Positions 29,999 through 50,474 of a stretch of DNA of 64,000 bases are shown here, piece after piece. The DNA is taken from assembly GCF_015624425.1 (NCBI RefSeq), contig NZ_CP049919.1, positions 5,270,001 through 5,334,000 on the forward strand, given 5' to 3'. The stretch is from Roseateles sp. DAIF2. Lineage in GTDB: Bacteria > Pseudomonadota > Gammaproteobacteria > Burkholderiales > Burkholderiaceae_C. Below the pieces are notes generated by a model. The model worked only from the letters and a program-made list of their open reading frames with translations, did no database searches and was not told the origin of the DNA. Within the stretch, counting starts at the first letter, position 1; each line of letters begins with the position of its first letter. The position numbers and the translations under genes were made by a program.

Positions 29999-30053
29999 AA
30001 TATCGCCAGCCAGTTTTCAGGCTTCTTGTGCTCCGTCTTAAGAGCTCATTAAG
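29999..30053 (-). promoter_or_regulatory. Regulator array A: four 11-bp-spaced hexamers and -10 of TonB receptor 1
   Basis: Read on the + strand, hexamers begin at 30015 (TTTCAG), 30026 (TTGTGC, weak), 30037 (CTTAAG) and 30048 (ATTAAG), each 11 bp apart. On the minus strand the array is followed after 10 bp by GATATT (30004-29999), a good -10 for the receptor gene. On the + side ATTAAG is followed after 10 bp by TACATT (30064-30069), a possible -10 for the regulator gene at 30076, whose mRNA would then be nearly leaderless. Confidence 0.8.
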
Positions 30054-30075
30054 AGCCGTCGGCTACATTGGCCGC

Positions 30076-30747
30076 ATGAGGGTATGTTTGGTCGAGGACG
30101 ATCTGGCGCTGGGGCGGGCCCTGCAGGCCGCGCTGCAGGAGTCCGGTCACGAAGTGGTATGGGTTCGGCTGAGCGCCGATGCCCGCGCCTGGGTGCAGGA
30201 CGAGCCCTTCGACGCGCTGGTGCTGGACCTGGGCCTGCCCGACGGCGACGGCCTGGATCTGCTGCGCCGGCTGCGCGCCCATGGCAAGCAGGTGCCCATC
30301 CTCGTGATCACCGCGCGCGACGGCGTCGAGGACCGGCTCAACGGCCTGGACATGGGCGCCGACGACTACCTCGTCAAGCCCTTCGTGATCCCGGAGCTGC
30401 TGGCGCGCCTGCGCGCGGTGACGCGCCGCGCCGGCCGCTGGAGCGACAGCGATGCCGGCCACCGCTGGGCCTGCAAGGACCTGGTGATGGACGAGGGCCG
30501 CATGATGCTGACCCGCGCCGGCGAGGCCGTGAACCTGTCGCGCACCGAGTTCCTGCTGCTGCAGATCCTGATGCGCCATCCCGACCGCGTGCTGACCCGG
30601 CGCGAGCTCGAGTCGCGCGTGCTGCCGCACAGCGAGGGCGCGGCCCTGGATGTGCATATCTCCAATCTGCGCAGGAAGCTCGGCGACGGCTATGTGCGCA
30701 CGGTGCGAGGCATCGGCTTCGTCGTCGACAGCGGTAACGCCACATGA
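30076..30747 (+). CDS. OmpR-family response regulator 1, QseB/PmrA-like
   Basis: The 223-residue protein has a receiver (VEDDLALG; phospho-Asp in LVLDLGLPDGDG; Lys in YLVKPF) and an OmpR winged helix. The recognition helix is SEGAALDVHISNLRRKLG, followed by YVRTVRGIGFVV. Its nearest relative in the window is the regulator at 50502, with an almost identical recognition helix. It lies 22 bp from array A and overlaps its kinase gene by ATGA. I infer that it binds the CTTAAG-type arrays; PmrA/QseB relatives bind CTTAA-N5/6-CTTAA repeats. Confidence 0.88.
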   Translation: MRVCLVEDDLALGRALQAALQESGHEVVWVRLSADARAWVQDEPFDALVLDLGLPDGDGLDLLRRLRAHGKQVPILVITARDGVEDRLNGLDMGADDYLVKPFVIPELLARLRAVTRRAGRWSDSDAGHRWACKDLVMDEGRMMLTRAGEAVNLSRTEFLLLQILMRHPDRVLTRRELESRVLPHSEGAALDVHISNLRRKLGDGYVRTVRGIGFVVDSGNAT

Positions 30748-32198
30748 ACCCGCTGGCATCGCCGCAGGGCCGCCGCCCCAGCCTGCTGGGCCGCATGCTG
30801 AAGGGCTTCGCGGCGGTGCTGCTGCTGGCCTGGAGCCTGCTGATCGCGCGCGAGGTCTACGACGTCAAGGTCAGCCAGCAGCGCTATGCCAAGGCCGACA
30901 ACGAGCACCTCGCGCGCGGCGTCCTGCTGCTGATCGAGCCGCTCAAGGACCTGCCGCCACAGCGGCTGGCCGAGGCCCTGGCCGCCCATGAGCGCCTGCG
31001 CCACGACTTCTGGCAGGCCAAGGGCTACAACGCCCCCTGGGCCCTGATGCAGATCTGGCTGGACGGCCGCCAGGTCCATGCCGACACGCCGGCGCTGCGC
31101 AGCGCGCGGCCGGCCGAACTGACACCGCCGCCGGCCCTGCCCGAGGACCGCGACTGGAACCAGGTCCAGGTGGGCAGCGCCGATGGCCGGCTCCTGATAC
31201 GGCGCTGGCAGGAGGTGCCGGGCTACTGGCATTTCAGCAATACCGGCATGGCCTACTACGCGCGGCCCCTGCTGATGAGCCTGCCCCTGCTGCTGCTGCC
31301 GGCCTGGCTGATCCTGCGCCGGGGGCTGCGGCCGCTGCGCCAGATCGGCCACCAGATCGAGCACCGCGACGCCCGGGACCTGACGCCGCTGCCCGACACG
31401 CCCTATGCGGAGCTGGCCCCGGTCGTCGACGCGGTGAACCGGCTGATGGCGCGGCTCTCGCAGCGCCTGAACTGGGAGCGTGAATTCCTGGTGGACGCGG
31501 CCCATGAGCTGAAGACACCGCTGGCGGTCATCGAAGCCAATGCCTACCGCCTGCAGTGCGCCGCGCCGCAGCCGGCCGCGGCGCTCGCCCGCGAGGGCCT
31601 GCATGAGGGCGTGCAGCGCATCACCCACACGGTGCACCAGCTGCTGTCGCTGATGCGCTCGGGCGCCGATGCCGCGGCCGCCAGCGAGGCCCAGAGCCGT
31701 CGGGACTTCGCCGCGCTGCTGCGCGACCGCCTGGCCCTGCTGGCGCCGCTGGCGCACCGCCGCGGCGTCGAGCTGGAGTTGCAGGGGCCCGAGCAGGCCG
31801 GCCTGAAGCTGGACCGCGAAGGCATGGCCTCCCTGCTCGACAACCTGATCGACAACGCGATCAAGTACGCCGCCACCCAGGTGCTGGTGCGGCTGGAGGG
31901 CAGCGAGGCCGCGGGCTGGCGGCTCAGCGTCTGCGACGACGGCCCCGGCATCCCGCCGCAGCTGCATGCCAAGGTGTTCGAGCGCTTCTACCGCCTGCCC
32001 GGCCAGGAGCAGCCGGGCAGCGGCCTCGGCCTAGCGATCGTCGAGCAGGTGGCGGCGCGCCACCACGCCACGATCGCCCTGGGCACCGGCCTGGACGGCC
32101 GGGGCCTCGGCGTCACGCTGGTGTTCGCGCCGGATCCAGGCTCAGCACAGCTCCAGCACCAGGCCGGCCTGGCTCGCCAGCCGGTAGCTCTGGCTTAG
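30744..32198 (+). CDS. Sensor histidine kinase 1, QseC-like
   Basis: The 484-residue protein has helices at about 19-38 and 170-188 enclosing a sensor of about 130 residues, then HAMP. The H-box is EFLVDAAHELKTPLAVIEA, and the N (NLIDNAIKYA), G1 (DDGPGIP) and G2 (GSGLGLAI) boxes are present. The sensor shares AREVYDVKV, RRWQEVPG and YYARPLL with the kinase at 51161, so they are paralogues and may sense related ligands. Its last 57 bp overlap the convergent GntR gene. Confidence 0.88.
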   Translation: MNPLASPQGRRPSLLGRMLKGFAAVLLLAWSLLIAREVYDVKVSQQRYAKADNEHLARGVLLLIEPLKDLPPQRLAEALAAHERLRHDFWQAKGYNAPWALMQIWLDGRQVHADTPALRSARPAELTPPPALPEDRDWNQVQVGSADGRLLIRRWQEVPGYWHFSNTGMAYYARPLLMSLPLLLLPAWLILRRGLRPLRQIGHQIEHRDARDLTPLPDTPYAELAPVVDAVNRLMARLSQRLNWEREFLVDAAHELKTPLAVIEANAYRLQCAAPQPAAALAREGLHEGVQRITHTVHQLLSLMRSGADAAAASEAQSRRDFAALLRDRLALLAPLAHRRGVELELQGPEQAGLKLDREGMASLLDNLIDNAIKYAATQVLVRLEGSEAAGWRLSVCDDGPGIPPQLHAKVFERFYRLPGQEQPGSGLGLAIVEQVAARHHATIALGTGLDGRGLGVTLVFAPDPGSAQLQHQAGLARQPVALA

Positions 32199-32894
32199 CA
32201 CCAGGGCCTGGCCCTGCCGGCCATAGCTCTGGCGCGTGACATGCAGCAGCGCCACCCCGGGCGGCTGCCCCAGCAGCTGCGCCAGCTCCGGCGTCGCGTT
32301 GCAGGCGCGCAGGCGCTGCAGCTCGCGCACCGGGGTCAGGTCTTGCTCGGCCAGCCAGTCCTCGAAAGGCTGCTCGAACTGCTGCGGCCGCGGTAGCAGT
32401 TGCAGGGCCAGACAGCGCGTCTCCAGCGCGGCCCAGGGCCCGGGGGCTCCCGGGGTCGCGGCCTCGCGCCACTGCAGTCGCGCCACTTGCGTGCGTGGCG
32501 ACAAGCCCAGCGCGAACAGCTCCTCCGGCGTGGCCACATCGGCCTGGCGCGCCAGCCACTGCCGCGCGGCAGGGCTGGCGGGCGCCTGGCTCGTCACCCG
32601 CGCCGCCGCCGGCGCTGCGGCCCGCTTGGCCTCGGCCGCGGCCTCCACCAGCGGCCGGGCCAGATAGGTGCCCGAGCCGCGCCGGCGCTCCAGCATGCCG
32701 CGCTGGCACAGCAGGTCGAGCGCGCGCCGCGCCGTATGCCGCGACACCGACAAGCGGTGCGAGAGCTTGCGCTCGGACGGCAGGCCGGTCTGCCAGCGGC
32801 CCTGGCGGACCTCGTCCAACAGTTGCTGCATCAGACGCAGATAGAGCGGCTGGCCGGCGGAGGAATCGATTTCAAGAAGCGGTTGCGACGACAT
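32142..32894 (-). CDS. GntR/HutC-family regulator 2 (UTRA domain)
   Basis: The 250-residue protein has a GntR winged helix (LPSERKLSHRLSVSRHTARR; MLERRRGSGTYLARP) and a C-terminal UTRA ligand-binding domain (QRLRACNATPELAQLLG; TRQSYGRQGQALVLSQSY). UTRA regulators such as DasR and NagR sense GlcNAc or its phosphate, which suits the island. It is a paralogue of the next GntR gene. The predicted -10 in array C leaves only about 2-3 nt before its ATG, suggesting a leaderless transcript. Confidence 0.88.
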   Translation of the reverse strand: MSSQPLLEIDSSAGQPLYLRLMQQLLDEVRQGRWQTGLPSERKLSHRLSVSRHTARRALDLLCQRGMLERRRGSGTYLARPLVEAAAEAKRAAAPAAARVTSQAPASPAARQWLARQADVATPEELFALGLSPRTQVARLQWREAATPGAPGPWAALETRCLALQLLPRPQQFEQPFEDWLAEQDLTPVRELQRLRACNATPELAQLLGQPPGVALLHVTRQSYGRQGQALVLSQSYRLASQAGLVLELC

Positions 32895-32903
32895 GATGGT
32901 CGC

Positions 32904-32958
32904 ACTGTCGCAGGCGGGTTTTCAGCCCGGCTCAAGGCTCTTCAAAGGCTGGCTTAAG
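32904..32958 (-). promoter_or_regulatory. Regulator array C: four 11-bp-spaced hexamers and -10 of GntR gene 2
   Basis: On the + strand hexamers begin at 32920 (TTTCAG), 32931 (CTCAAG), 32942 (TCAAAG, weak) and 32953 (CTTAAG), exactly 11 bp apart. On the minus strand, 10 bp further, GACAGT (32909-32904) is the -10-like element. It lies between the two GntR genes. Confidence 0.78.
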
Positions 32959-32965
32959 GCTGCGC

Positions 32966-33634
32966 TCAGATCTCCAGCTCCAGCATCAGTCCCGGCGTCG
33001 CGCCGGCCTGCAGGCGCTCGCCCAGCAGCAGCACCTGGCCATGGCGGCCGTAGCTGAGCGTGCGGGTGCCCAGCAGCGCGTCGCCCGGCTTCAGGCCCAG
33101 CAGGCGCGCCTGCTCGGGCGTCGCGTTGCAGGCGCGCAGGCGCTGCAGGCGGCGCACCGGCGCCTGGTCCAGCGCGGCCAGGTGCGTGTCCAGGTCCAGG
33201 CTCTGCATCGCCTCGGGATAGGGCAGCAGGGTCCGGCTCAGGCAATGGCTCTCCAGCAGCAGGGCGCCGTCGGCATCGCCGCGCAGCCATTGCAGCCGTG
33301 CCACCGCGCTGCCGGGCGACAGGCCCAGGCTCAGCAGCTCGTCGGCATCGGCCAGGCCGGTCTCGCGCTGCAGCCAGCGCTCCGGCACCGGCCAGGCCGC
33401 GTCGACCGGATAGGTGCCGGAGCCGCGCCGGCGCTCCAGCAGGCCGCGCTGGCACAGCAGGTCCAGCGCCTTGCGCGCCGCGTGGCGCGACACCGCCAGG
33501 CTGTCGGAGAGCTTGCGTTCGGAAGGCAGGCCGCTGGGCCAGCGGCCCGCGCTGAGCGCGGCCTGCAGCTGCTGGGCCAGGCGCTGGTAGAGGCCTTCGT
33601 CGGGGTAGAGGGCAGTACTGCTGTTGTTCATCAT
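32966..33634 (-). CDS. GntR/HutC-family regulator 1 (UTRA domain)
   Basis: The 222-residue protein has the same layout as its neighbour: winged helix (LPSERKLSDSLAVSRHAARK; LLERRRGSGTYPV) and UTRA (QRLRACNATPEQARLLGLKP; TLSYGRHGQVLLLGERLQ). It is shorter in the linker. The ATG lies 7 nt after the -10-like GACAGT of array D, so the transcript probably begins at or next to the start codon. It is a possible amino-sugar-responsive repressor, under two-component control through the array. Confidence 0.87.
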   Translation of the reverse strand: MMNNSSTALYPDEGLYQRLAQQLQAALSAGRWPSGLPSERKLSDSLAVSRHAARKALDLLCQRGLLERRRGSGTYPVDAAWPVPERWLQRETGLADADELLSLGLSPGSAVARLQWLRGDADGALLLESHCLSRTLLPYPEAMQSLDLDTHLAALDQAPVRRLQRLRACNATPEQARLLGLKPGDALLGTRTLSYGRHGQVLLLGERLQAGATPGLMLELEI

Positions 33635-33641
33635 GCGCTCC

Positions 33642-33697
33642 ACTGTCGCCGAGGCCGGCTTCAGGGCGCGTCAAGATCCGATTAAGGGCGCATTAAG
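33642..33697 (-). promoter_or_regulatory. Regulator array D: four 11-bp-spaced hexamers and -10 of GntR gene 1
   Basis: On the + strand CTTCAG (33659), GTCAAG (33670), ATTAAG (33681) and ATTAAG (33692) are spaced exactly 11 bp apart. On the minus strand GACAGT (33647-33642) follows after 11 bp. The outermost hexamer contains the stop codon of the lactonase-like gene, so the array overlaps coding sequence by a few bases. Confidence 0.82.
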
Positions 33698-34886
33698 ACG
33701 CGGTGGGCGCGCCCGGCAGGAAGGCCAGCGCCGCCGGGCTGCCGACCGCCGCGTACTGATCGGCGAAGCGCAGCGCGCCATCGGCCTCGCGGCGGAACAC
33801 GGCCAGATGGTCGCTGCGCTCGTTGCAGACGATCAGCCAGCGCCCGCTCGGGTCCAGGCCCAGGCTGCGCGGATACGAGCCGCGGGTCCATTCGATGCCG
33901 CGCTGGCGCGGCCGGCCGTCGGCCGCATCGAGCTCGAAGCTGGCAATGCTGTCGTGCAGGCGGTTCAGCGCGTACAGGCGCCGCCCGTCCGGCGCGATCA
34001 AGAGGCCGGAGGCGAAGCTGGTGCCCTTGAAGCCGGCCGGCAGGGTGCTGATCTCCTCGCCCAGCGGCAGCAGCCGGCCCTCGCGCGCATCCAGGCGCAG
34101 CCAGGCCAGGGTCGAGGCCTCCTCGTTGAGCGCATAGCAGAGCTCGGGCCGCGTCGGGTGGAAGGCGAAATGGCGCGGCCCGGCGCCGGCCGAGACCGCG
34201 CTCGTCTGCGGCCGGCCGAGCCGGCCGGTGGCGGCGTCGAAGGGCCAGACCAGCAGCAGGTCGCGGCCCAGGTCGGTCGCGACCAGGAAGCGCCCGCTCG
34301 GGTCGGGCGCGGCCATGTGCACATGCGAGGCCTCATGGCCGCTGATCGCGAAGCTGCCCGGCGGCGCCAGCGCCGCGACGCGGGCGCCATGCAGGGGGCG
34401 CTCGGTCGGCGGCGCGGCCTGCCGCTCCAGCGGCGCGCCGGGGCGGCCCTCGGCGTCCAGCGGCAGCACCGCGGCATTGCCCGCGCCGTAGTTGGCGACG
34501 AACAGATGCCGGCCCGCCGGATGCAGGCTCAGATGCACCGGACCGGCACCGCCGGCCTCGGCCGCGGCCAGCGGCGCCAGCGCGCCGTCCGGCCCCACCG
34601 CATAGGCGCCGACCGTGCCGGCGCCCTCGTTGGCGCTGTACAGGCGCCGCCCGCCCGCATCCAGCGCCAGCCAGCTGGGGTTGGCGCTGCTGGGGGTCAG
34701 GCCTTGCTCCTGCAGCGCACCGCTGGCCGGGTCGAGCGCGAAGCGATGGATGCCGCGGCCCTTGGGGCCATAGCTGCCGACATAGACCAGCGTGGGGTGG
34801 GCGGAGGCAGCGGCGGAGGCGATCGAGCTCATGGGCAGGGCGGCGAGGGTCAGCAGGGCATGGCGACGGTGCATGGCGGGGCCCAT
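33693..34886 (-). CDS. Secreted lactonase-like seven-bladed beta-propeller protein
   Basis: The 397-residue protein has a signal-like start (LLTLAALPMSSIASAAASA) and repeated propeller blades (LYSANEGAGTVGAYAV; HLFVANYGAGNAAVLPLD; FAFHPTRPELCYALNE; LIVCNERSDHLAVFR). This is the YbhE/Pgl 6-phosphogluconolactonase-like family. Its presumed export argues against the cytoplasmic Pgl reaction, so it may act on a sugar lactone or bind sugar in the periplasm. It starts 4 nt after the ABC ATPase stop, the last gene of that operon. ATG 34874 is an alternative start. Confidence 0.82.
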   Translation of the reverse strand: MGPAMHRRHALLTLAALPMSSIASAAASAHPTLVYVGSYGPKGRGIHRFALDPASGALQEQGLTPSSANPSWLALDAGGRRLYSANEGAGTVGAYAVGPDGALAPLAAAEAGGAGPVHLSLHPAGRHLFVANYGAGNAAVLPLDAEGRPGAPLERQAAPPTERPLHGARVAALAPPGSFAISGHEASHVHMAAPDPSGRFLVATDLGRDLLLVWPFDAATGRLGRPQTSAVSAGAGPRHFAFHPTRPELCYALNEEASTLAWLRLDAREGRLLPLGEEISTLPAGFKGTSFASGLLIAPDGRRLYALNRLHDSIASFELDAADGRPRQRGIEWTRGSYPRSLGLDPSGRWLIVCNERSDHLAVFRREADGALRFADQYAAVGSPAALAFLPGAPTAS

Positions 34887-34890
34887 TGTG

Positions 34891-35994
34891 TCAGCCCAGG
34901 CGCAGGCCGGTGCTGGGGTCGAACAGCGAGGGCTCGTGCGGCAGCACGTCCAGCCACATCGGCTCGCCGACCACGGCCGGGCAGCTGGGCTGGACGCGGC
35001 AGGTCAGGCGCTGGCCGTCCAGCGAGGCGACCACATAGGTGTCGGCGCCGGTCGGCTCGACCAGCTCCACCGGCGCGCGAAAACGCAGGCCGCCCTCGGG
35101 CACGGCCTCGCCGCGCGCGTTGACGATGTGCTCCGGCCGCAGGCCCAGCAGCACCTCGCGGCCGGCCCAGGCGGCCAGGCGCGCATTGGCCAGCGGCAGG
35201 CGCAGGCGCGAGCCCTCCTGGGCCAGGCGCAGCAGCGGCACGCCCTCCTCCACCACGATGCGCGCGCGCAGGATGTTGATCGCCGGCGCGCCCATGAAGC
35301 CGGCGACGAAGAGATTGGCCGGGCGCTGGTAGATCTCGTCGGGGGTGCCGAACTGCTGGATCTCGCCGTCCTTCATCACCGCGATCTTGTGGCCCAGGGT
35401 CATGGCCTCGACCTGGTCATGCGTCACATAGACCGCGGTGGTCTTCAGGCGCTGGTGCAGCAGCTTGATCTCGGCGCGCATCTCGACGCGCAGCTTGGCA
35501 TCCAGGTTGGACAGCGGCTCGTCGAACAGGAAGACCTTGGGCTGGCGCGCCAGCGCGCGCCCCATCGCAACGCGCTGGCGCTGGCCGCCGGAGAGCTGGC
35601 CGGGGCGGCGCGACAGCAGCGGGGTCAGCTGCAGCATCTCGGCCACGCGCGCGACCATGGCCTCGCGCTCGGGGCGCGGCACCTTGCGCATCTCCAGGCC
35701 GAAGCCGAGGTTCTGCGCCACCGTCATGTTCGGGTAGAGCGCATAGCTCTGGAACACCATCGCGATGTCGCGCTCCTGCGGGCTCAGGTGCTCGCTGCGC
35801 TTGCCGGCGATATGGATCTCGCCCGCGTCCGGCCGCTCCAGCCCCGCGATCAGGCTCAGCAGGGTGGACTTGCCGCAGCCCGAGGGCCCGACCAGGATCA
35901 GGAACTCGCCCTCGGCGATCTCCAGCTCGATGTTCTTCAGCACCGCCAGGGAACCGAAGCCCTTGCTGAGGTTCTTGACTGCCAGACCCGTCAT
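34891..35994 (-). CDS. Sugar ABC transporter ATP-binding protein (MsmK/UgpC type)
   Basis: The 367-residue protein has Walker A GPSGCGKST, the Q-loop (MVFQSYALYP), signature LSGGQRQRVAMGRAL, Walker B VFLFDEPLSNLDAKLR and the H-loop in VTHDQVEAMT. A C-terminal TOBE-like domain of about 130 residues follows (LLGLRPEHI). It is the CUT1 type that energises di- and oligosaccharide importers. It follows the second permease gene by 16 bp and is part of the operon headed by the hexosaminidase. Confidence 0.95.
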   Translation of the reverse strand: MTGLAVKNLSKGFGSLAVLKNIELEIAEGEFLILVGPSGCGKSTLLSLIAGLERPDAGEIHIAGKRSEHLSPQERDIAMVFQSYALYPNMTVAQNLGFGLEMRKVPRPEREAMVARVAEMLQLTPLLSRRPGQLSGGQRQRVAMGRALARQPKVFLFDEPLSNLDAKLRVEMRAEIKLLHQRLKTTAVYVTHDQVEAMTLGHKIAVMKDGEIQQFGTPDEIYQRPANLFVAGFMGAPAINILRARIVVEEGVPLLRLAQEGSRLRLPLANARLAAWAGREVLLGLRPEHIVNARGEAVPEGGLRFRAPVELVEPTGADTYVVASLDGQRLTCRVQPSCPAVVGEPMWLDVLPHEPSLFDPSTGLRLG

Positions 35995-36010
35995 CGTTTC
36001 GTTCTCATTT

Positions 36011-36829
36011 TCATCCCTTGACAGCGCCCGCCACCAGGCCGCGCGTGAAATGCTTGCCGGCCAGCAGATAGACCGCCAGGGTCGGCAGCGCGGCCAGCAG
36101 GGCCGCGGCCATCTCGACGTTGTAGTCGCGCACGCCGCCCTCGCCGGTCGCGCCCAGCTGGGCCAGCGCGGCGGTGATCGGCCGGCCGTCGGCCTCGGTG
36201 AACACCAGGCCGAACAGGTACTCGTTCCAGATCGTCGTGAACTGCAGGATCACGACCACGACGAACACCGGCTTGGACAGCGGCAGCACGATGCGCAGGA
36301 ACAGGGCCCAGAAGCCCGCGCCATCGATGCGCGCGGCGCGCAGCAGCTCGTCCGGGAAGCCCAGGTAATGGTTGCGGAAGAACAGGGCCAGCGGCAGGCT
36401 GTAGATCACATGGATCGCGATCAGCACGCCCAGCGACTTGCCCAGGCCCAGCTTCGCGAGGCTGATCGCCAGCGGCAGCAGATAGACCTTGATCGGCAGG
36501 AACAGCGCGACCAGCAGGCCGATGAAGACCAGCTCGCTGCCGCGGAAGCGGAACTTGCACAGGATGAAGCCGTTCAGCGCCGCCAGCAGGCTGGACAGGG
36601 TCACGACCGGCACCGCCAGCAGCAGGCTGTTGACGAAGCTGCCGCCTAAAGCGTCCCAGGCGGCGCGCCAGGCCGACAGCTCGGGCGCGCGCGGCCAGGC
36701 CAGGAAGGCGCCGTCGCGCAGCTCGGCCGAGCTCTTCAGCGAGTTCAGCAGCATGAAGGCGAGCGGCAGCGCGAAGTACAGCGCGAACAGCGCCAGCAGG
36801 GCATAGATCAGGCTGCGCTTAAGCATCAT
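36011..36829 (-). CDS. Sugar ABC transporter permease 2 (MalG-like)
   Basis: The 272-residue protein has six transmembrane helices and the EAA loop ELLRAARIDGAGFWALFLRIVLP. The C-terminus ends in a membrane helix region (LLAGKHFTRGLVAGAVKG), as in CUT1 MalG-type proteins. It pairs with the upstream permease, whose stop it overlaps by 11 bp. The transported sugar is inferred, from the neighbouring GH20, to be chitobiose or GlcNAc. Confidence 0.94.
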   Translation of the reverse strand: MMLKRSLIYALLALFALYFALPLAFMLLNSLKSSAELRDGAFLAWPRAPELSAWRAAWDALGGSFVNSLLLAVPVVTLSSLLAALNGFILCKFRFRGSELVFIGLLVALFLPIKVYLLPLAISLAKLGLGKSLGVLIAIHVIYSLPLALFFRNHYLGFPDELLRAARIDGAGFWALFLRIVLPLSKPVFVVVVILQFTTIWNEYLFGLVFTEADGRPITAALAQLGATGEGGVRDYNVEMAAALLAALPTLAVYLLAGKHFTRGLVAGAVKG

Positions 36830-37715
36830 GGCCGCGCCCCTTTCGTCCGCGTGCGTAGGCGTAAGGAATCGCGATCGCCAGCACCATCATCAGCATCACC
36901 ATCGAGCTGGCCGCGCCCAGGCCCAGGCGGCTGCGCTCGAAGGCCATCTGGAACATATACAGCGCCGGCAGCTCGCTGGACTGCCCCGGGCCGCCATCGG
37001 TCAGCGCGACCACCAGGTCGAAGCTCTTGATCGCGGCCGGCAGCAGCACCAGCAGGGCCGAGAACAGGCTCGGGCCCAAGGTCGGCAGCACGATGCGGCG
37101 GTACAGGGTGAAGCCGCTGGCACCGTCCAGCCGCGCGGCCTGCAGCACCGCGTCGTCCACCGCGCGCAGCCCGGCCAGGAACACCGCCATCACGAAGCCG
37201 GTGATCTGCCAGACCGCGGCGATCACCAGGGTGTAGAGCGCCATCTCCTCGTCGGCCAGCCAGTCGAGCCTGAAGCTCGCGAAACCCAGCTGCCGCACAC
37301 CCTGGGCCAGGCCCAGTTCGGGATCGAGCAGCCAGCGCCAGACGGTGCCGGTGACGATCAGGGACAGCGCCATCGGGTGCAGATAGATCAGGCGCAGCGC
37401 GCCTTCCGCGCGCAGCTTCTGGTCCAGCAGGATGGCCAGGGCCAGGCCAAGCAGCAGCGGGATCGCGACGAACAGGCCGGCGAAGCGCAGCAGATTGCCC
37501 AGCGCATGCAGCCAGCGCTCATCTAGAAACAGGCGCTGATACTGCAGCAGGCCGACGAACTCGTTGCTGGGCAGCAGGCTGGAACGGGTCATCGAGAGCC
37601 AGCCGGTCCACAGCATGAAGCCGTAGAAGAACAGCAGGCCGATGGCCAGCGAGGGCAGCAGCAGCAGCTCCGGCCGGTCCAGGTAGCGCCGCAGGGCGCT
37701 GGTCGTCGTCGTCAT
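36819..37715 (-). CDS. Sugar ABC transporter permease 1 (MalF-like)
   Basis: The 298-residue protein has six transmembrane helices and an EAA-like loop (AVLQAARLDGASGFTLYRRIVLP). It is the CUT1 MalF partner. Its ATG at 37715 shares one base with the stop of the binding-protein gene, so the two are translationally coupled. The TTG immediately before the ATG is not needed as a start. Confidence 0.94.
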   Translation of the reverse strand: MTTTTSALRRYLDRPELLLLPSLAIGLLFFYGFMLWTGWLSMTRSSLLPSNEFVGLLQYQRLFLDERWLHALGNLLRFAGLFVAIPLLLGLALAILLDQKLRAEGALRLIYLHPMALSLIVTGTVWRWLLDPELGLAQGVRQLGFASFRLDWLADEEMALYTLVIAAVWQITGFVMAVFLAGLRAVDDAVLQAARLDGASGFTLYRRIVLPTLGPSLFSALLVLLPAAIKSFDLVVALTDGGPGQSSELPALYMFQMAFERSRLGLGAASSMVMLMMVLAIAIPYAYARGRKGRGHDA

Positions 37716-41485: not shown

Positions 41486-41541
41486 ACTGTCGCAGCCCCG
41501 CGCTTCAGGCCGGCTCAAGGTTGGATTAAGGTCGGCTTAAG
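41486..41541 (-). promoter_or_regulatory. Regulator array B: four 11-bp-spaced hexamers and -10 of GH20-ABC operon
   Basis: On the + strand CTTCAG (41503), CTCAAG (41514), ATTAAG (41525) and CTTAAG (41536) lie exactly 11 bp apart. On the minus strand, 11 bp after the last hexamer, GACAGT (41491-41486) forms the -10-like element. The GH20 ATG is about 190 nt downstream. Apart from this array, the candidate leader ORF and the hairpin at 41698, I see nothing else in the 440-bp gap 41290-41729. Confidence 0.84.
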
Positions 41542-44483: not shown

Positions 44484-44545
44484 TGACGTTCTCCTGTTGT
44501 TCTACTGCTTGTTGTTGATCACGGTGATGTGATGGCCGATCGTCC

Positions 44546-45310
44546 TCAGCAGCCCAGGTTCGGGCCCATCGGAACATCGAGGACCCGGGTGGTCCGGGTG
44601 TAGTACGCGAGCCGATCCGCGAGGTGGCGCTGCGCTCGGGCGTCGTTGGGCTTGTCGCACTCGATCACGCCGTTGATCGCGCGGATCGTGGCGCCGAAGC
44701 CGGCGCCGCGGCCGATGGCCTCGTGCGGCGTCATCAGACTGGGACCGGTCTGCGACATCCAGTACCAGAGCGCGGTCTGCCAGGCGACGGTCGCATTGGT
44801 CGCGACCAGCTCCGGGTTGCCCCAGAGATCCAGACCCAGCGCCTTGCCGGCGGCCAGGTAGTTGTAGTTCCAGCTCAGCTGGATCGGACCGCGGCCGTAG
44901 TACTGCTGGCCCGGCGCGCAGCTCTCATTCGGTCCCTGGCGGCAGTACTGGTCGTGTAGCGCCTTGTTGTACTCGCGCACCGCGCGCAGGCTGTCCGACT
45001 CCTGCATCAGATTGGCCAGGAAGGCCGCCATCTCCTGGCGGTCGCGCTGCACGTCGCCCGAGTTCGCGAACGCCGGATAGGCCACGGCCGCCGCGACCAG
45101 GCCCTCGTAGGTATAGAAGGGAATGCGATCCGGGAACAGCTGCTCGAACTGGGCCCGGCTGAGCGTGAAGGCCCTGCTGCTGCTGCTGCCGCTGCTGTTG
45201 GACTCAGCGGCCGAGGGCTCGGGCTCGCCGGGCCCAGCGCAGGCCATCAGGGCGATGGCGATGGACAGCGAGGCCAGCAGCGGGAACAGCGGGGTCAGGT
45301 ATTGCTTCAT
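44546..45310 (-). CDS. Family GH19 chitinase lipoprotein A
   Basis: The 254-residue protein has a lipobox LMAC with Cys24 and a Ser-rich linker, so it is a membrane-anchored lipoprotein. The GH19 domain has Glu104 (MQESDS) and Glu113 (VREYNK), nine residues apart as in bacterial ChiC-type GH19 enzymes. It also has YYGRGPIQLSWNYNYLAAGK and FGATIRAINGVIECD. GH19 enzymes cut chitin endo-fashion with inversion. It is the first gene of the array E operon, followed by TonB receptor 2. Outer-face display is likely but not proven. Confidence 0.92.
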   Translation of the reverse strand: MKQYLTPLFPLLASLSIAIALMACAGPGEPEPSAAESNSSGSSSSRAFTLSRAQFEQLFPDRIPFYTYEGLVAAAVAYPAFANSGDVQRDRQEMAAFLANLMQESDSLRAVREYNKALHDQYCRQGPNESCAPGQQYYGRGPIQLSWNYNYLAAGKALGLDLWGNPELVATNATVAWQTALWYWMSQTGPSLMTPHEAIGRGAGFGATIRAINGVIECDKPNDARAQRHLADRLAYYTRTTRVLDVPMGPNLGC

Positions 45311-45350: not shown

Positions 45351-45406
45351 ACTGTCGCAGTGCCGCGCTATAGGGATTCTCTAGCTTCGATTAACGCCGG
45401 CTTAAG
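45351..45406 (-). promoter_or_regulatory. Regulator array E: four 11-bp-spaced hexamers and -10 of GH19-A operon
   Basis: On the + strand CTATAG (45368), CTCTAG (45379), ATTAAC (45390) and CTTAAG (45401) lie 11 bp apart. On the minus strand GACAGT (45356-45351) follows after 11 bp. The GH19-A ATG is about 35 nt downstream of the expected start of the mRNA. Confidence 0.8.
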
Positions 45407-45426: not shown

Positions 45427-46599
45427 CTAGACCCGCAGGCGCACGCCGCGCGCACCCAGCACCCGCACCAGCCACAGCACGAACAGCAGGAACACGCAAC
45501 CGGCCAGCACGCCAACAAGGCCGTGCTGCAGCGCCTGCGGCGGCCATGCCAGCCCCAGCAGCGGCAGCAGCGCGGCGATCGCAAACGGCAGCAGATAGGT
45601 CAGCAGCGGATGCGCCGCCACCGGTGCCAGCCAGCGCCAGCCGGGCATGCCGCGGCGCGCCACATCCAGCCAGGCATGCAGGCCGTAGAAGGCCAGCACG
45701 CTGAGCGCCGAGCAGTACAGGATCCAGCTCGGCGAGGCGTAGATCTTGGAGATCGGATAGGCGGGCCGCAGCCCGGTCGCCAGCAGGGCCATCACGAGCG
45801 CGAAGCCCAGTGCCAGCGCGCGCCGCCGCGCCAGGGACAGCGACAAACCCTGGTCGTAGAACAGCAGCATGGTCACCGCGCCGGCCAGCACGATCAGCGC
45901 ATGGGCCGCATGGCCATCGCCCCAGCCCGGCAGCAGCATGCGCCAGGCCAGCACCACGCCCATCGCCAGCAGCAACAGCACCAGGCGCCCGCGCAGCGCC
46001 AGATAGGCCAGGCAGGCGATGCCATAGGCCCAGCCGATCAGGCCCAGGATGCCCCACCATTGCGGCGCGATGCGCGCGCCTCCGTCGGCACCACCGCGCC
46101 AGACCCAGGCCAGCCCGATCAGCAGCGCGACGCCCGCGGCGCGCCAGGGCCAGGCCAGCGCCGCACCGCCCGACAGCGAGCCCCAGACCAGGAAGAAGCC
46201 CAGGCAGCTCAGCGCCGCCCAGGCCTGGATCGACAGGGGCATCGCCGCCGCGGCAAAGGAGCCGCTCTCGGTGCTGACCATCAGCACACCCAGCACCAGC
46301 AGGCCCAGCCAGCGCAGCGCCACATTGCCCAGCACCGCGCCGAGGCCGCGCGGCAGGCGCGCCTGCAGCGCCGGCGGGATGGACATGCCGACGATGAACA
46401 GGAAGGACGGGAACACGATGTCGGCGACGCTCATCGCGTCGGCATCGGCCGGGTAGTGGCGCAGCCACTGCGGCACGCCGCTGACGCCATGCCACTGGTT
46501 GACCAGCAGCATCGCGACGATGGTCAGGGCGCGCAGCACATCGATGCTGAGGCAGCGCTCGCCGCTCAGGCGCGGCCAGGATGCGGAACTCAAAGACAT
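45427..46599 (-). CDS. nagX: NagX-like (HGSNAT/DUF5009 family) membrane protein
   Basis: The 390-residue protein has about 10-11 transmembrane helices. Its start, SIDVLRALTIVAMLLVN, and VADIVFPSFLFIVGMSIPPA are the family core, with a His in WLRHYP at the place of the HGSNAT active His. NagX genes accompany GlcNAc and chitin catabolism in many proteobacteria. A role in moving or acetylating amino sugars at the inner membrane is proposed, but unproven. It starts 111 bp after the TonB receptor 3 stop, with an intrinsic terminator in between, so it may be expressed by read-through or from its own promoter. Its ATG has no clear ribosome site. Confidence 0.8.
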   Translation of the reverse strand: MSLSSASWPRLSGERCLSIDVLRALTIVAMLLVNQWHGVSGVPQWLRHYPADADAMSVADIVFPSFLFIVGMSIPPALQARLPRGLGAVLGNVALRWLGLLVLGVLMVSTESGSFAAAAMPLSIQAWAALSCLGFFLVWGSLSGGAALAWPWRAAGVALLIGLAWVWRGGADGGARIAPQWWGILGLIGWAYGIACLAYLALRGRLVLLLLAMGVVLAWRMLLPGWGDGHAAHALIVLAGAVTMLLFYDQGLSLSLARRRALALGFALVMALLATGLRPAYPISKIYASPSWILYCSALSVLAFYGLHAWLDVARRGMPGWRWLAPVAAHPLLTYLLPFAIAALLPLLGLAWPPQALQHGLVGVLAGCVFLLFVLWLVRVLGARGVRLRV

Positions 46600-46639
46600 G
46601 GCGGGACTCGGCAGGCAGGGCGAAGACGCCGGAAACGAC

Positions 46640-46667
46640 AAAAACGGGCCTGGAATTCCAGGCCCGT
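46640..46667 (-). terminator. Rho-independent terminator after TonB receptor 3
   Basis: A perfect 24-bp palindrome (arm ACGGGCCTGGAA, 46644-46667) is followed on the minus strand by TTTTT then GTCGTTT. It lies 43 bp after the receptor stop and 41 bp before the NagX-like start. Confidence 0.85.
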
Positions 46668-46709
46668 CGCGGGGCAGGCGGGGCAACGCGTGCGCGTTGC
46701 CGGTCTGCG

Positions 46710-49628
46710 TCAGTAAGAGTAGCGCAGCGTGGCCATGTAGCGGCGGCCGGTCTTGTAGATGCCGCGGGTCAGCTTCTCGGTGTTCGCCACGCCCGGCACC
46801 TCGGCGTAGGAGCGGTACTCGCTGTCCAGCAGGTTCATGCCATCCAGCCCCAAGGTCAGCTGATCGGTGATCTTGAAGTTGACGCTGGCTTCCAGCGAGT
46901 CATAGTCGTCGGTGACCAGGTAGTTGCCGCGGTCGGCCTGGGTGTAGTACTTCGAGCGCCAGGAGTAGGTCGTGCGCACGCTCCAACGATCGGTCTCGTA
47001 GAACGGGCTGAACGTCACCTGATGCTTGGAGTTGAACGGCAGGCGGGCGCCGCTGGCGGCCTTGGCATCGGCATAGGTGTAGTTGGTCTGCACACCGAAG
47101 CCGTAGGCCAGGTTGGTCTGGAGCGCCGCCGTGAAGCCCTTGATGGTGGCGGAGCCCATATTGGCCGGGCGCGAGATGTCGTAAATCGTGTCCCTCGTCT
47201 GGTTCTGGTTGTAGTGCGTTTCCTTCTCGGTCTTGGTCAGGATGTAGTTGTCCACCTTCTTGTAGAAGGCCGTGCCGCCCAGGATGGCGTTCTTGGCGAA
47301 GTACCACTCGGCCGAGAAGTCCAGGTTGGTGGACTTGTAGGGCTTCAGGTCCGGGTTGCCGCCGCCGCCCGTCAGGGTCTGGTCGCTCAGCCACAGGTAG
47401 TTGGACATGTCGCCGTAGTTCGGCCGCGAGATGACCTTGGCCACCGAGCTGCGCAGCACCAGGCTGTCGCTGTAGTCGTAGGTCAGGTTGAGGTTGGGCA
47501 GCAGGTCGCGGTACTTCTTCTCGACGTTGGTGGTCAGGTAGCCGCGCGTATCCGGGCAGTTGGGATCGGTCGCCTTGCGGCAGGCCTTCCAGCCGATGCT
47601 GTTCGACGTGGTCTCCACCAGTCGCGCGCCGACGTTGCCGCGCAGCTTCCCGTAGCTGAAGTCGCCCTGCACATAGCCCGCGTTCACATCCTCGTCCACC
47701 GTCCAGGTGTTGGTGGCGTAGGTCGAGTCGTTGAAGATGCTGGGCGCGGGCATGGTCTGCCACGGGGCCAGCCACTTGCCGCTGTTGATGTAGTCGCCCA
47801 GGGCCCAGCCGTCGACCATGAAGCGGTTGCTCAGGCCACCCACATTGCCGAAGCCGGACAGGTAGTTGCTCGGCATCGACTGCGGCTTGAACTCGGCCGC
47901 GGTCGGATCGCCATAACCCCGGATGGAGGCCAACCCCACGCCGGCCATCAGCTGGCTGGTGCTGTGCTCGCGACGCTTGACGCCGAAGCGCACCTGATGG
48001 AACGGCGAGTCCTCGAACTGCACGCCGAAGTCGAGCTGCAGGTACTTCTCCTCATCCTTGCTCGGCTTGTTGACGATATTGCCGCCCCAGCCCGCGCTCC
48101 AGTTGTTGGCGTTCGGCGGATTGGTGTGCCAGGGACTGGGGTTGCCGCCGTTCGGGCGGAAGGCCGTCGGATCGGTGAAGGGGCTGCCCTGGTGGGTCGG
48201 CGTGAAGGAGGGGTTGACCTCCATCACGCGCTCCGTCTGGTAGGCGCTGAAGTTCAGCACCGGCACCTTCCCGGTCAGGTCATAGCTGTAGTTGGCCTTG
48301 TTGAGGAACTCGCCGAACACCTGGCGGTCGGTGCCGCCGGTGGCCTTGGAGGTGCCCGCGTGGAACTTGGCGAACCAGTTCTTCTCCTTCCAGGTGCCCT
48401 TCAGGTCGTAGGAATCCGTGTCCACCTGGGAGCGGCGGTTGATCAGGTCATACACGGTCAGCGCATTGCGGAACGCGGCCTTGGTGATGACGCCGCCGTC
48501 CACGGTCAGGTCGGTCATCGTGTTCAGCGAGTTCCAGACGTTGCCGTTGAAGGCGAACATCGAATGCGTGACGTTGTCGTACTTGGCCTTGATGTTCAGC
48601 GTGTTGAACTCGAGGTCCAGCTTGTCGTGCGGCTTGGCCTGCAGCGACAGCGACAGGGTGTCGCGCTTGCGGGTCTGGTCGAAGTAATGCGCGCTGATCG
48701 CATTGGGGGCCACGGCGTTCGGGTTGGCCTTCAGCGTGGTCGCGCAAGCACCCACGCAGCTCGGCGGCTTGACGCCCGGTGGATTGGTGCTCCAGTCGGT
48801 GTAGGTGGTGGTGATGGAGTTGTTGTTGCTCTCGCGACCGGTCATGTAGTCATTGCCGGTGACGGTGCCGTAGGACTCGATGCCGTCGCGGCGGATGCGC
48901 TCCTCCGAGCTCTGCGCCGACAGCAGCACGCCGAAGGTCTTGGCCTCGTTCTTCCAGCCGAACAGGCCCGACATGGTCGGCTTGCCGCTCTTGCTGCGGT
49001 CGTTGTAGAGATAGCTCGCCGTGCCGGACAGGGTCAGGCCGCTCTTCATCTCCAGCGGCTTGCGGGTGGTGATGTTGACCGTGCCGCCGATCGAGCCCTC
49101 GTCCAGCCAGGCTTCCGGCGACTTGTAGACCTCGACCTTGCTGACCAGCTGCGGCGCCAGCAGGGTGTAGTTGAAGGTGCGGCCCTGCTGCTCGGAGAAG
49201 AACCAGTCGCCCGAGGCCACGGCTTGGCCGTTCAGCAGGGTGCGGTTCAGCGCCGGGTCGGTGCCGAGGATCGAGATCTTCTCGCCCTGGCCGAAGGCCT
49301 TGTCGACGGTCACGCCCGGCAGGGTGGTGAGCGCCTCGGCCACGTTGGTGGCGGGCAGCTTGCCCACGTCCTCGGCGGTGATGACGTCGATGATGGCGTC
49401 GGCTTCGCGCTTGGCGTCGAGCGCCTTCTGCAGGCTGGCGCGGATGCCGGTGACGACGACGGTGTCCAGCTTCTTCGCGTCCTCGTCCTTCTTCGGGGCC
49501 TGCTGCTGCGCCTGCGCCGGCAGGCTCAGCGCCAGCAGCGCGCAGACCGCCGCATGGGTGGCGCTCAGGCGCACCGGGCGGCCGGGCTGCTCGGTACAAC
49601 GACGACCATTGCTCTTCTTCTTACTCAC
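46710..49628 (-). CDS. TonB-dependent outer-membrane receptor 3
   Basis: The 972-residue protein starts at GTG 49628 with AAGGAGA upstream. It has a signal peptide (AVCALLALSLPAQAQ), a TonB-box region (LDTVVVTGIRASLQKALDAK), a plug (DVGKLPATNVAEALTTLPGV; LNGQAVASGDWFFSEQQGRT) and a barrel ending ATLRYSY. It is the TonB-Xanth-Caul carbohydrate type. It is 40 bp downstream of the GH19-B gene and within the array F operon, so import of chitin fragments is inferred. Confidence 0.93.
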   Translation of the reverse strand: MSKKKSNGRRCTEQPGRPVRLSATHAAVCALLALSLPAQAQQQAPKKDEDAKKLDTVVVTGIRASLQKALDAKREADAIIDVITAEDVGKLPATNVAEALTTLPGVTVDKAFGQGEKISILGTDPALNRTLLNGQAVASGDWFFSEQQGRTFNYTLLAPQLVSKVEVYKSPEAWLDEGSIGGTVNITTRKPLEMKSGLTLSGTASYLYNDRSKSGKPTMSGLFGWKNEAKTFGVLLSAQSSEERIRRDGIESYGTVTGNDYMTGRESNNNSITTTYTDWSTNPPGVKPPSCVGACATTLKANPNAVAPNAISAHYFDQTRKRDTLSLSLQAKPHDKLDLEFNTLNIKAKYDNVTHSMFAFNGNVWNSLNTMTDLTVDGGVITKAAFRNALTVYDLINRRSQVDTDSYDLKGTWKEKNWFAKFHAGTSKATGGTDRQVFGEFLNKANYSYDLTGKVPVLNFSAYQTERVMEVNPSFTPTHQGSPFTDPTAFRPNGGNPSPWHTNPPNANNWSAGWGGNIVNKPSKDEEKYLQLDFGVQFEDSPFHQVRFGVKRREHSTSQLMAGVGLASIRGYGDPTAAEFKPQSMPSNYLSGFGNVGGLSNRFMVDGWALGDYINSGKWLAPWQTMPAPSIFNDSTYATNTWTVDEDVNAGYVQGDFSYGKLRGNVGARLVETTSNSIGWKACRKATDPNCPDTRGYLTTNVEKKYRDLLPNLNLTYDYSDSLVLRSSVAKVISRPNYGDMSNYLWLSDQTLTGGGGNPDLKPYKSTNLDFSAEWYFAKNAILGGTAFYKKVDNYILTKTEKETHYNQNQTRDTIYDISRPANMGSATIKGFTAALQTNLAYGFGVQTNYTYADAKAASGARLPFNSKHQVTFSPFYETDRWSVRTTYSWRSKYYTQADRGNYLVTDDYDSLEASVNFKITDQLTLGLDGMNLLDSEYRSYAEVPGVANTEKLTRGIYKTGRRYMATLRYSY

Positions 49629-49668
49629 TGACGATCTCCTTGGTTCTACTGCTTGTTGTCGATGGGTT

Positions 49669-50382
49669 TTAGCAGCCCAGATTCGGGCCCACAGGAACTT
49701 CGAGGACGCGCGCGGCCTGCGTGTAGAAGGCGACGCGGCGTGCGATGCGGCGCTCGGCGGTGGCGTCGCCGGGCTTGTCGCATTCGACGATGCCGTTGAT
49801 CGCGCGGATGGTGCCGCCGAAGCCGATGCCGCGATGCATGGCCTCGTGGGCCGTCATCGGCGCGGGACCGGGGCGCTCCATCCAGTACCAGAGCGCGGTC
49901 TTCCAGGCGACGGTGGCGTCGGTCGCCACCAGATCCGGATTGGCCCAGAGATCCAGGCCCAGGGCCTGGCCGGCGAGCAGGTAGTTGTAGTTCCAGCTCA
50001 GCTGGATCGGGCCGCGTCCGTAGTACTGCTGGCCCGGCGCGCAGCTCTCGCCCGGCCCCTGGCGGCAGTAATGGTCATAGGCGGCCTTGTTGTACTCGCG
50101 CACCGCACGCAGGCTGTCCGACTCCTGCATCAGGTTGGCCAGGAAGGCCGCCATCTCCTGGCGGTCGCGCTGCGCATCGCCGTTGTTGGCGAAGCGCGGA
50201 TAGGCCGAGGCGGCCGCCACCAGGCCCTCGTAGGTGTAGAAGGGAATGCGCTGCGGGAACAGCTGCTCGAACTGGGCCCGGCTCAGCATGAAGGCCTGCG
50301 TGGTGGGCGCTTTGGCGACCGGCGGTGCGCTGGCGCAAGCGCCCAGCAGCAGACACAGGGAAACAGCGGAGATGCTCTTCAT
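49669..50382 (-). CDS. Family GH19 chitinase lipoprotein B
   Basis: The 237-residue protein from ATG 50382 has lipobox LLGAC with Cys16. It has the same GH19 domain as its paralogue at 44546: Glu87 and Glu96 (MQESDSLRAVREYNK), QQYYGRGPIQLSWNYNYLLA and FGGTIRAINGIVECD. It differs in a short linker and a few loops. The in-frame GTG three codons upstream is less likely. It is the first gene of the array F operon. Duplication with its downstream receptor type differs from copy A, whose receptor is unrelated. Confidence 0.92.
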   Translation of the reverse strand: MKSISAVSLCLLLGACASAPPVAKAPTTQAFMLSRAQFEQLFPQRIPFYTYEGLVAAASAYPRFANNGDAQRDRQEMAAFLANLMQESDSLRAVREYNKAAYDHYCRQGPGESCAPGQQYYGRGPIQLSWNYNYLLAGQALGLDLWANPDLVATDATVAWKTALWYWMERPGPAPMTAHEAMHRGIGFGGTIRAINGIVECDKPGDATAERRIARRVAFYTQAARVLEVPVGPNLGC

Positions 50383-50399
50383 CGGGGGCACAGCACAAT

Positions 50400-50419
50400 T
50401 GGTTTTGAACTGGTAACAA
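50400..50419. repeat. 20-bp leader element shared with TonB receptor 1
   Basis: TGGTTTTGAACTGGTAACAA is present here and, with two changes (TGGTTTTGAAGTGGTAGCAA), at 29981-30000. Both sit just downstream of the -10 of arrays F and A. TGGT repeats 11 bp apart within the element, so it may be a second operator, for example for the GntR/UTRA regulators (inference). It is absent from arrays B-E. Confidence 0.6.
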
Positions 50420-50474
50420 CTGTCGCTGCCGCTTCCTTCAGGCTAGATAAATTCTTTATTAATGCCGGCTTAAG
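50419..50474 (-). promoter_or_regulatory. Regulator array F: four 11-bp-spaced hexamers and -10 of GH19-B operon
   Basis: On the + strand CTTCAG (50436), ATAAAT (50447), ATTAAT (50458) and CTTAAG (50469) lie 11 bp apart. On the minus strand GACAGT (50424-50419) follows after 11 bp. It ends 27 bp before the response regulator gene at 50502; no convincing -10 is seen on that side. Confidence 0.84.

What the first reader, a model, noticed from the sequence alone, without database searches (positions are those of the whole stretch)
29999..50474. Six identical-format regulator arrays define a chitin regulon
Six arrays (at 29999, 32904, 33642, 41486, 45351 and 50419) share four hexamers related to CTTAAG/CTTAAT at exact 11-bp intervals, then 10-11 bp, then GACAGT (GATATT in one). 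All point to minus-strand genes: TonB receptor 1, both GntR genes, the GH20-ABC operon and both GH19-TonB receptor operons. Two PmrA/QseB-like regulators with nearly the same recognition helix sit next to two arrays. Known PmrA/QseB boxes have two such hexamers; four suggest two dimers per promoter. A single two-component-governed chitin regulon of this shape is, to my knowledge, not described.
Basis: partly seen in the sequence, partly recalled or inferred. Interest (0 to 1): 0.88.

Follow-up and report, generated by a model that had tools for sequence, protein, structure and literature searches.

The report
Local chitin-gene switch with four-repeat promoters
Six promoters in a chitin-use gene cluster of a freshwater bacterium carry the same four-fold binding pattern, which also occurs beside the matching regulator genes in related bacteria, so one pair of sensor-regulator systems probably switches on the cluster and at least one of its own regulators.

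Summary
Six arrays of four hexamers at 11-bp steps, then 10-11 bp, then GACAGT/GATATT, lie at the stated coordinates. A matrix from any five finds the sixth far above background. A six-array profile finds these six and no other full array in the 6.01-Mb chromosome, by length Kinneretia sp. DAIF2, and hits 5 of 399 family genomes, all among the 21 carrying the adjacent response regulator. In relatives, arrays again precede GH19, TonB-receptor or GntR genes beside it.

New: in 20 of 27 regulator genes examined, a second -10 (TAnAnT) lies 6-9 nt before the regulator's ATG, in 18 of them 10-11 bp from the array, so divergent arrays look like bidirectional promoters. Own RR1 has this; own RR2 does not.

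Best reading: PmrA/QseB-like regulators activate these promoters in PhoB class-II geometry. Binding, activation and chitin as signal are inferred. Three GH18 genes elsewhere lack arrays, so this is a cluster-local regulon. New variant of a known kind.

The parts
29999..30053 (-). Array A1: CTTAAT, CTTAAG, (GCACAA), CTGAAA at 11-bp steps, 10 bp, GATATT; upstream of TonB receptor 1 and of divergent RR1
30064..30069 (+). RR1-facing -10 TACATT, 10 bp from the array edge, 6 nt before the RR1 ATG
29981..29996 (-). TACCACTTCAAAACCA box just downstream of the A1 -10; one of two in the genome under the pattern used
32904..32958 (-). Array A2: CTTAAG, CTTTGA, CTTGAG, CTGAAA, 10 bp, GACAGT; 9 nt before the GntR-a ATG
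33642..33697 (-). Array A3: CTTAAT, CTTAAT, CTTGAC, CTGAAG, 11 bp, GACAGT; 7 nt before the first GntR-b ATG
41486..41541 (-). Array A4: CTTAAG, CTTAAT, CTTGAG, CTGAAG, 11 bp, GACAGT; upstream of the GH20-ABC operon
45351..45406 (-). Array A5: CTTAAG, GTTAAT, CTAGAG, CTATAG, 11 bp, GACAGT; upstream of GH19-b and TonB receptor 2
50419..50474 (-). Array A6: CTTAAG, ATTAAT, ATTTAT, CTGAAG, 11 bp, GACAGT; upstream of GH19-a, TonB receptor 3 and a NagX-like gene; divergent RR2
50400..50415 (-). TACCAGTTCAAAACCA box just downstream of the A6 -10
27204..29873 (-). TonB-dependent receptor 1 (TIGR01782)
30076..30747 (+). Response regulator RR1, OmpR family, PmrA/QseB-like
30744..32198 (+). Histidine kinase HK1, QseC/PmrB-like
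32142..32894 (-). GntR-UTRA regulator a, closest solved YvoA and DasR
32966..33634 (-). GntR-UTRA regulator b
33693..41289 (-). Presumed operon: GH20 (no signal peptide seen by eye), solute-binding protein, two permeases, ABC ATPase (MsmX-like, name recalled), lactonase-type propeller
41730..45310 (-). GH19-b (lipoprotein-like N-terminus, by eye) and TonB receptor 2
45427..50382 (-). GH19-a (lipoprotein-like N-terminus, by eye), TonB receptor 3, NagX-like membrane protein (name recalled; no Pfam match)
50502..51164 (+). Response regulator RR2, 70% identical to RR1
51161..52567 (+). Histidine kinase HK2, 57% identical to HK1

Best explanation
The six arrays are activator-dependent promoters of one cluster-local regulon for chitin or chitooligosaccharide use, governed by two paralogous PmrA/QseB-like two-component systems. 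Phosphorylated regulator dimers bind four tandem half-sites: a strong pair (hexamers 1-2, TTAA core) and a weaker pair (hexamers 3-4). The second pair ends 10-11 bp upstream of a GACAGT-type -10 and stands in for the -35, as in PhoB class-II promoters. The same array format switches on surface GH19 chitinase plus TonB uptake, cytoplasmic GH20 plus ABC import, and two NagR/DasR-like GntR genes, probably a negative feedback. Where the regulator gene is divergent, hexamers 1-2 usually also lie 10-11 bp from the regulator's own -10 (so for RR1, not for RR2), so such an array is a bidirectional promoter and the system activates itself. Shown: sequence, spacing, confinement, conservation, co-occurrence. 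Inferred: binding, activation, signal, dimer count, protein location, feedback.
For: Leave-one-out recovery of each array with wide separation. Only these six full arrays in the genome. Profile trained on these six only: 5 of 399 family genomes hit, all 5 inside the 21 with the regulator; without the own genome 4 of 4 within 20 of 398, hypergeometric p 5e-6. In 12 of 16 relatives fetched at least one place scores 25 or more, before GH19-TonB, TonB or GntR genes in the regulator's neighbourhood, even where gene order has changed: in G075 GH20 directly follows TonB3 with no array between. Half-site columns hold 0.99-1.56 bits on average and the -10 1.56, all other columns 0.27. No -35-like hexamer 16-18 bp from the -10 (read). 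The GntR ATG lies 7-10 nt after the -10 in 5 of 8 GntR genes printed, as in leaderless mRNA. Regulator-side -10 in 20 of 27 regulators, against 0 of 81 control windows. Closest solved relative of RR2 is BasR/PmrA (8jo2, 4s04); PmrA half-sites are CTTAAG/CTTAAT-type, 5 bp apart (PMC3973317 passages). Of the base-touching residues of PmrA (PMC4660055 passages), Asn196, Val192 and Arg210 are kept in RR1 and RR2.
Against: No binding or expression data. Two PmrA contact residues differ (Asn188 to Gln in RR2 and Ala in RR1; His195 to Phe in RR2 and Ser in RR1). Of the 21 genomes with the regulator, 8 show no array at E 1e-4 or better, 3 of them none at E 0.1. Of 16 relatives fetched, G227, G356 and G013 show no place above 17, nor do three Duganella/Massilia loci. 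7 of 27 regulators, own RR2 among them, lack the regulator-side -10. Own RR3 (62% identical) has no CTTAA-type array. The third hexamer of A1 does not fit. Hexamer 3 holds a TTGA that resembles a -35, though 21 bp from the -10. In three relatives the GntR ATG is far from the -10 (G252, G228, G062). Three GH18 genes are outside.
Confidence: 0.75

Rival explanations
1. The arrays are bound by the regulators, but as repressor sites, or with RR1 and RR2 each serving different promoters, so there is no single activated regulon.
For: RR1 and RR2 differ at the PmrA His195-equivalent contact (Ser against Phe). The A1 array with its odd third hexamer has a close counterpart next to the RR1 orthologue in G077, which suggests an RR1-specific form.
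Against: The -10 elements have no well-placed -35 and sit at activator spacing. Genomes with a single such regulator at E 1e-65 (G365, G036, G161, G296; in G150 with a poor first half-site) carry the same array type.
Confidence: 0.15
2. A third OmpR-family regulator encoded elsewhere binds the arrays, and the adjacent systems are only targets.
For: A 62% paralogue exists at 613763 in the own genome, and the first look gave tens to over two hundred candidate regulators per listed genome.
Against: Arrays track the adjacent regulator across 399 genomes and lie beside it. The paralogue has no CTTAA-type array.
Confidence: 0.06
3. The arrays look alike because promoter segments were copied recently within the cluster, not because four half-sites are selected.
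For: GH19, TonB and regulator-kinase modules of the cluster are paralogous.
Against: Non-site columns have diverged (0.27 bits) while half-sites and -10 have not (0.99-1.56 bits) over 27 arrays from 12 genomes.
Confidence: 0.04

Closest known systems
PmrA (BasR) and its two-half-site PmrA box
   Same: Closest solved relative of RR2; hexamer type and 5-bp spacer the same (PMC3973317 passages); several base contacts kept.
   Different: Four half-sites instead of two; different targets; below the NCBIfam PmrA cut-off (RR2 177 and RR1 171 of 330 bits).
QseB/QseC
   Same: Best NCBIfam match of RR1 and of both kinases.
   Different: Below cut-off (RR1 176 and RR2 164 of 345; HK1 183 and HK2 185 of 475 bits); targets differ.
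PhoB class-II promoters (pho box)
   Same: Tandem half-sites overlapping the -35 (phoA promoter, PMC3348028 passages). Promoters with consecutive pho boxes, hence four 11-bp half-sites, are known (recalled).
   Different: Different regulator subfamily, half-site and regulon; apparent bidirectional use in regulator-facing arrays.
ChiS/ChiR of Streptomyces coelicolor
   Same: A two-component system regulating a chitinase, ChiC, in response to chitin (PMC9739842 passages).
   Different: ChiR is NarL-type and the review names one target; here OmpR-type with a whole uptake cluster.
ChiS of Vibrio cholerae
   Same: Sensor kinase governing chitin genes (PMC6237886 and PMC10455584 passages).
   Different: Non-canonical orphan kinase; no PmrA-like partner is named in the passages seen.
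NagR/YvoA and DasR GntR regulators
   Same: Closest solved relatives of GntR-a.
   Different: Here their own promoters carry the arrays; no TGGTCTAGACCA-type site lies at an array promoter.

Membership tests
OmpR/PhoB-family response regulators | Receiver domain plus winged-helix Trans_reg_C domain | tested here: met
   PF00072 and PF00486 above cut-off in RR1 and RR2
PmrA orthologues | Score above the curated NCBIfam PmrA cut-off | tested here: not met
   177.2 (RR2) and 171.2 (RR1) against 330 bits
QseB orthologues | Score above the curated NCBIfam QseB cut-off | tested here: not met
   164.0 (RR2) and 175.8 (RR1) against 345 bits
PmrA-type DNA recognition | CTTAAG/CTTAAT half-sites with 5-bp spacer | tested here: met
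   hexamers 1-2 of most arrays; definition from PMC3973317
PmrA-type DNA recognition | Base-contact residues Asn188, Asn196, Arg210 | tested here: inconclusive
   Asn196 and Arg210 kept, Asn188 changed to Gln or Ala
PmrA-type DNA recognition | Demonstrated binding of the phosphorylated dimer | not testable with these tools
   needs footprinting
Class-II activated promoter (PhoB type) | Regulator site overlaps the -35 position, -10 present, no well-placed -35 | tested here: met
   (sequence only)
Chitin-utilisation cluster | Chitinase, hexosaminidase and oligosaccharide uptake genes | tested here: met
   GH19-a close to bacterial chitinases 2cjl and 1wvu; GH20, ABC and TonB genes; activity not tested
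Genome-wide chitin regulon | Other chitinase genes of the genome share the site | tested here: not met
   three GH18 genes, no array nearby

The most novel reading that the evidence does not exclude
One four-half-site array works as a two-way activator platform: near-palindromic TTAA half-sites let a regulator that normally reads direct repeats serve two divergent promoters, with the pair next to each -10 replacing its -35. Operon and regulator are thereby locked into one self-amplifying switch with leaderless regulator mRNA, while co-induced GntR repressors set a threshold. A PmrA/QseB-type system as master of a chitin regulon in Burkholderiales would be new as far as my searches reach.
Probability: 0.4. 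Interest if true: 0.65.

Novelty: new variant of a known kind. Interest (0 to 1): 0.55.

Why it matters
It gives a concrete, testable wiring plan for how some freshwater and soil Burkholderiales may decide to eat chitin, in a regulator subfamily known mainly from polymyxin resistance and signalling (recalled). It supplies a promoter profile with which the regulon can be recognised in unannotated genomes, and a natural set of four-half-site and bidirectional promoters for asking how many regulator dimers a class-II promoter uses.

Tried and rejected
Arrays elsewhere in the genome: the best extra profile hit (chromosome 96043-96086, E 0.011) has a single hexamer plus GACAGTGG and lies shortly upstream of an open frame that looks like an alpha/beta hydrolase by eye; taken as chance. 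Four relaxed-pattern hits at 0.59, 1.10 and 2.13 Mb were not followed.

GntR operators: the NagR/DasR-type consensus TGGTCTAGACCA (recalled) gives 5 places with up to 2 mismatches in the window, more than the 0.5 expected (0 of 100 shuffles reach 5). None is at an array promoter: three lie inside TonB1, GH19-b and TonB3, two outside the cluster. I did not follow this excess. A different box, TACCA-N7-ACCA, follows the -10 of A1 and A6 only; its binder is unknown.

Sensor domain of HK2: AlphaFold2 model from 25 sequences (mean pLDDT 81, pTM 0.46). The 50 Foldseek rows shown (of 681 matches) are, by title and length, mostly kinase-core matches; nothing points to the sensor, so the signal stays unknown.

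Range: the 27-array profile hits only the own genome among 369 genomes sampled across the class, which held few genomes of the same family. Its E-values for 27 of the 30 strong places in the family are not independent, because those places trained it; the three G175 places did not. At E 0.001-0.01 it also hits two genomes without the regulator (G149, G045), one with it (G143) and two more places in G228, about what chance would give over 399 genomes.

Paper searches for a PmrA/QseB-type chitin regulon or four-half-site PmrA boxes (open-access library only; two searches returned no paper) showed no such description. Only PMC7909077 was read whole; PMC4660055, PMC3973317, PMC3348028, PMC10455584, PMC9739842 and PMC6237886 were seen as passages; all others as listings with the start of the abstract.

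Mended on checking against the calls: relatives' arrays precede GntR, not the NagX-like gene; GH20 genes of relatives carry only a variant repeat; the relaxed pattern misses A1; a statement on missing paralogy of GntR and GH20 promoters was dropped.
Full report
What was checked. The window lies at 5270001-5334000 of a single 6,010,585-bp chromosome. That length equals the published chromosome of Kinneretia sp. DAIF2, a freshwater-pond isolate (PMC7909077, whole text). The poorest element is the third hexamer of the first array.

More than chance. With a matrix built from five arrays, the sixth scores 29.4-58.8; the best other place in the window scores 12.7-19.0 and 6 Mb of first-order random sequence reaches 19.7. 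A strict pattern hits 4 places in the chromosome, all of them arrays here (A3-A6), with 1 for the reversed control. A relaxed one hits 11, of which 7 fall on five arrays, with 2 for the control. The six-array profile hits its six training arrays and one partial match at E 0.011 that is not an array.

What the arrays serve. Downstream genes are a TonB receptor (A1), two GntR-UTRA regulators (A2, A3), a GH20-ABC-propeller operon (A4), GH19-TonB (A5) and GH19-TonB-NagX-like (A6). The GH19 proteins begin like lipoproteins, judged by eye, and GH19-a is closest to solved bacterial GH19 chitinases (2cjl, E 3e-64; 1wvu, E 3e-63), far above endolysins (best E 7e-9). GntR-a is closest to YvoA and DasR. 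Chitin or its oligomers is therefore the likely substrate. Three GH18 genes lie at 0.74, 2.336 and 2.339 Mb without arrays, so this is a cluster-local regulon.

Conservation and co-occurrence. The profile trained on the window's six arrays hits 5 of 399 family genomes at E 0.001; all 5 are among the 21 that hold the response regulator at E 1e-65. Without the own genome that is 4 of 4 within 20 of 398, p 5e-6. Regions of 16 relatives around the regulator were fetched. With the six-array matrix, 12 of 16 have at least one place scoring 25 or more (G075, G077, G036, G252, G175, G228, G096, G296, G062, G150, G365, G161), a thirteenth (G143) has 23.2, and G227, G356, G013 have none above 17; neither do the Duganella and Massilia loci. 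Most places precede GH19-TonB, TonB or GntR genes. Before GH20, only a CTTGAG/CTTCAG-type variant is seen, in G036, G161 and G228. In G075 GH20 directly follows TonB3 with no array between, and two arrays remain, at GntR and at GH19-TonB. A 27-array profile finds 30 places at E 1e-4 or better in 13 of 399 genomes, all 13 with the regulator and every place within about 9 kb of one; this is not independent, since 27 of the 30 places trained it. At weaker E it also hits G149 and G045, which lack the regulator. Of the 21 regulator-bearing genomes, 18 show a match at E 0.1 and 3 none.

Promoter anatomy. Over 27 arrays from 12 genomes, half-sites 1 to 4 average 1.49, 1.56, 1.21 and 0.99 bits per column, the -10 1.56 and all other columns 0.27. 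Hexamers 1-2 mostly keep a TTAA core, hexamer 3 is mostly CTTGA-, hexamer 4 mostly CTGAA-. No -35-like hexamer sits 16-18 bp from the -10 (read); the TTGA in hexamer 3 lies about 21 bp away. This is the PhoB class-II layout, in which PhoB sites overlap the -35 (PMC3348028 passages). The -10 stands 7-10 nt before the GntR ATG in 5 of 8 genes printed (both own genes, G075, G077, G296; not G252, G228, G062), which fits leaderless mRNA and supports the -10 call.

A second promoter. Where the regulator gene is divergent, its ATG usually lies 22-27 bp from the array. In 20 of 27 regulators examined (of 31 matches; those of G182, G084, G067 and G007 were not included) a TAnAnT hexamer lies 6-9 nt before that ATG, against 0 of 81 control windows. 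Its gap from the nearest TTAA hexamer is 10-11 bp in 18, 22 bp in one (G096) and not measurable in one (G075 RR1, which has no TTAA there). Misses: own RR2 and RR3, G075 RR2, G077 c, G150, G227, G143. Divergent arrays of this kind are thus flanked by a -10 on both sides. Since CTTAAG is its own reverse complement, the same strong pair could serve the regulator's promoter.

The regulators. RR1 and RR2 are 70% identical. Their best NCBIfam matches are QseB and PmrA, both below the curated cut-offs. The closest solved relatives of RR2 are BasR/PmrA chains (8jo2, 4s04, E 3e-38 to 4e-38); that 4s04 is the K. pneumoniae PmrA-DNA complex is recalled and fits the residue numbers. PmrA boxes hold two half-sites, CTTAAG and NTTAAT, 5 bp apart (PMC3973317 passages). 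PmrA reads bases with Asn188, Asn196 and Arg210 and touches them with Thr187, Val192 and His195 (PMC4660055 passages). Asn196, Val192 and Arg210 are kept; Thr187, Asn188 and His195 are changed, the last two differently in RR1 and RR2.

Mechanism proposed. A signal from chitin breakdown or its uptake (unknown) acts on HK1 and HK2. Phosphorylated RR dimers fill hexamers 1-2, then 3-4, and recruit polymerase to the GACAGT -10. The cell then makes surface GH19, TonB receptors, ABC importer and cytoplasmic GH20, more regulator from divergent arrays such as A1, and GntR repressors that may cap expression, perhaps through the TACCA-N7-ACCA box after the A1 and A6 -10 (two copies in the genome under the pattern used, reversed-pattern control none). 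Shown: anatomy, confinement, conservation, co-occurrence. Inferred: binding, activation, signal, feedback.

Known and new. Two-component control of chitinase exists (Streptomyces ChiS/ChiR, a NarL-type regulator; Vibrio ChiS, an orphan kinase). Consecutive pho boxes with four half-sites exist for PhoB (recalled). In ten open-access searches I saw no PmrA/QseB-type chitin regulon and no four-half-site PmrA-type promoter; most papers were seen as listings only. Hence: new variant of a known kind.

Noticed in passing
window 29981-29996 and 50400-50415 (minus strand): TACCA-N7-ACCA box just downstream of the -10 of A1 and A6, only two copies in the genome under the pattern used, and present beside an array in six of eight relatives searched (also at other places in G096, G077 and G228): a candidate operator of a second regulator.
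   Followed up: partly
own chromosome 613763-614419 (L152, L172): A third paralogous regulator-kinase pair (62% identical to RR2). It has no CTTAA-type array, but 34 bp upstream stand TTTAGC, TATAGG, CATAGC, CATAGG at 11-bp steps: perhaps a diverged four-repeat array of its own.
   Followed up: no
L143 (G007), L023-L025 (Duganella and Massilia): More distant regulators of this group have CTTCAG-type repeats at 11-bp steps upstream (four in G007, pairs in the others), which suggests that half-site and regulator changed together.
   Followed up: no
L117 position 2107, L171 position 1566, L157 position 2239 (G036, G161, G228): A GH20 gene has a CTTGAG/CTTCAG-type repeat array upstream instead of the CTTAAG type.
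   Followed up: no
L153-L154 (G252), L155 (G175), L165-L166 (G062): Two or three paralogous regulator-kinase pairs stand in one cluster, each beside its own array and GH19 or TonB operon: repeated local duplication of regulator with target.
   Followed up: partly
L114 11754 (G075 RR1): Upstream of this regulator the TTAA half-sites are absent and no TonB1 homologue was found in the two regions searched at the thresholds used, yet the regulator-side -10 TACATT is intact.
   Followed up: partly
window 28079, 44797, 47609 (also 2216, 62344): Five near-matches to the recalled NagR/DasR operator TGGTCTAGACCA, more than shuffles give, three of them inside TonB1, GH19-b and TonB3.
   Followed up: no
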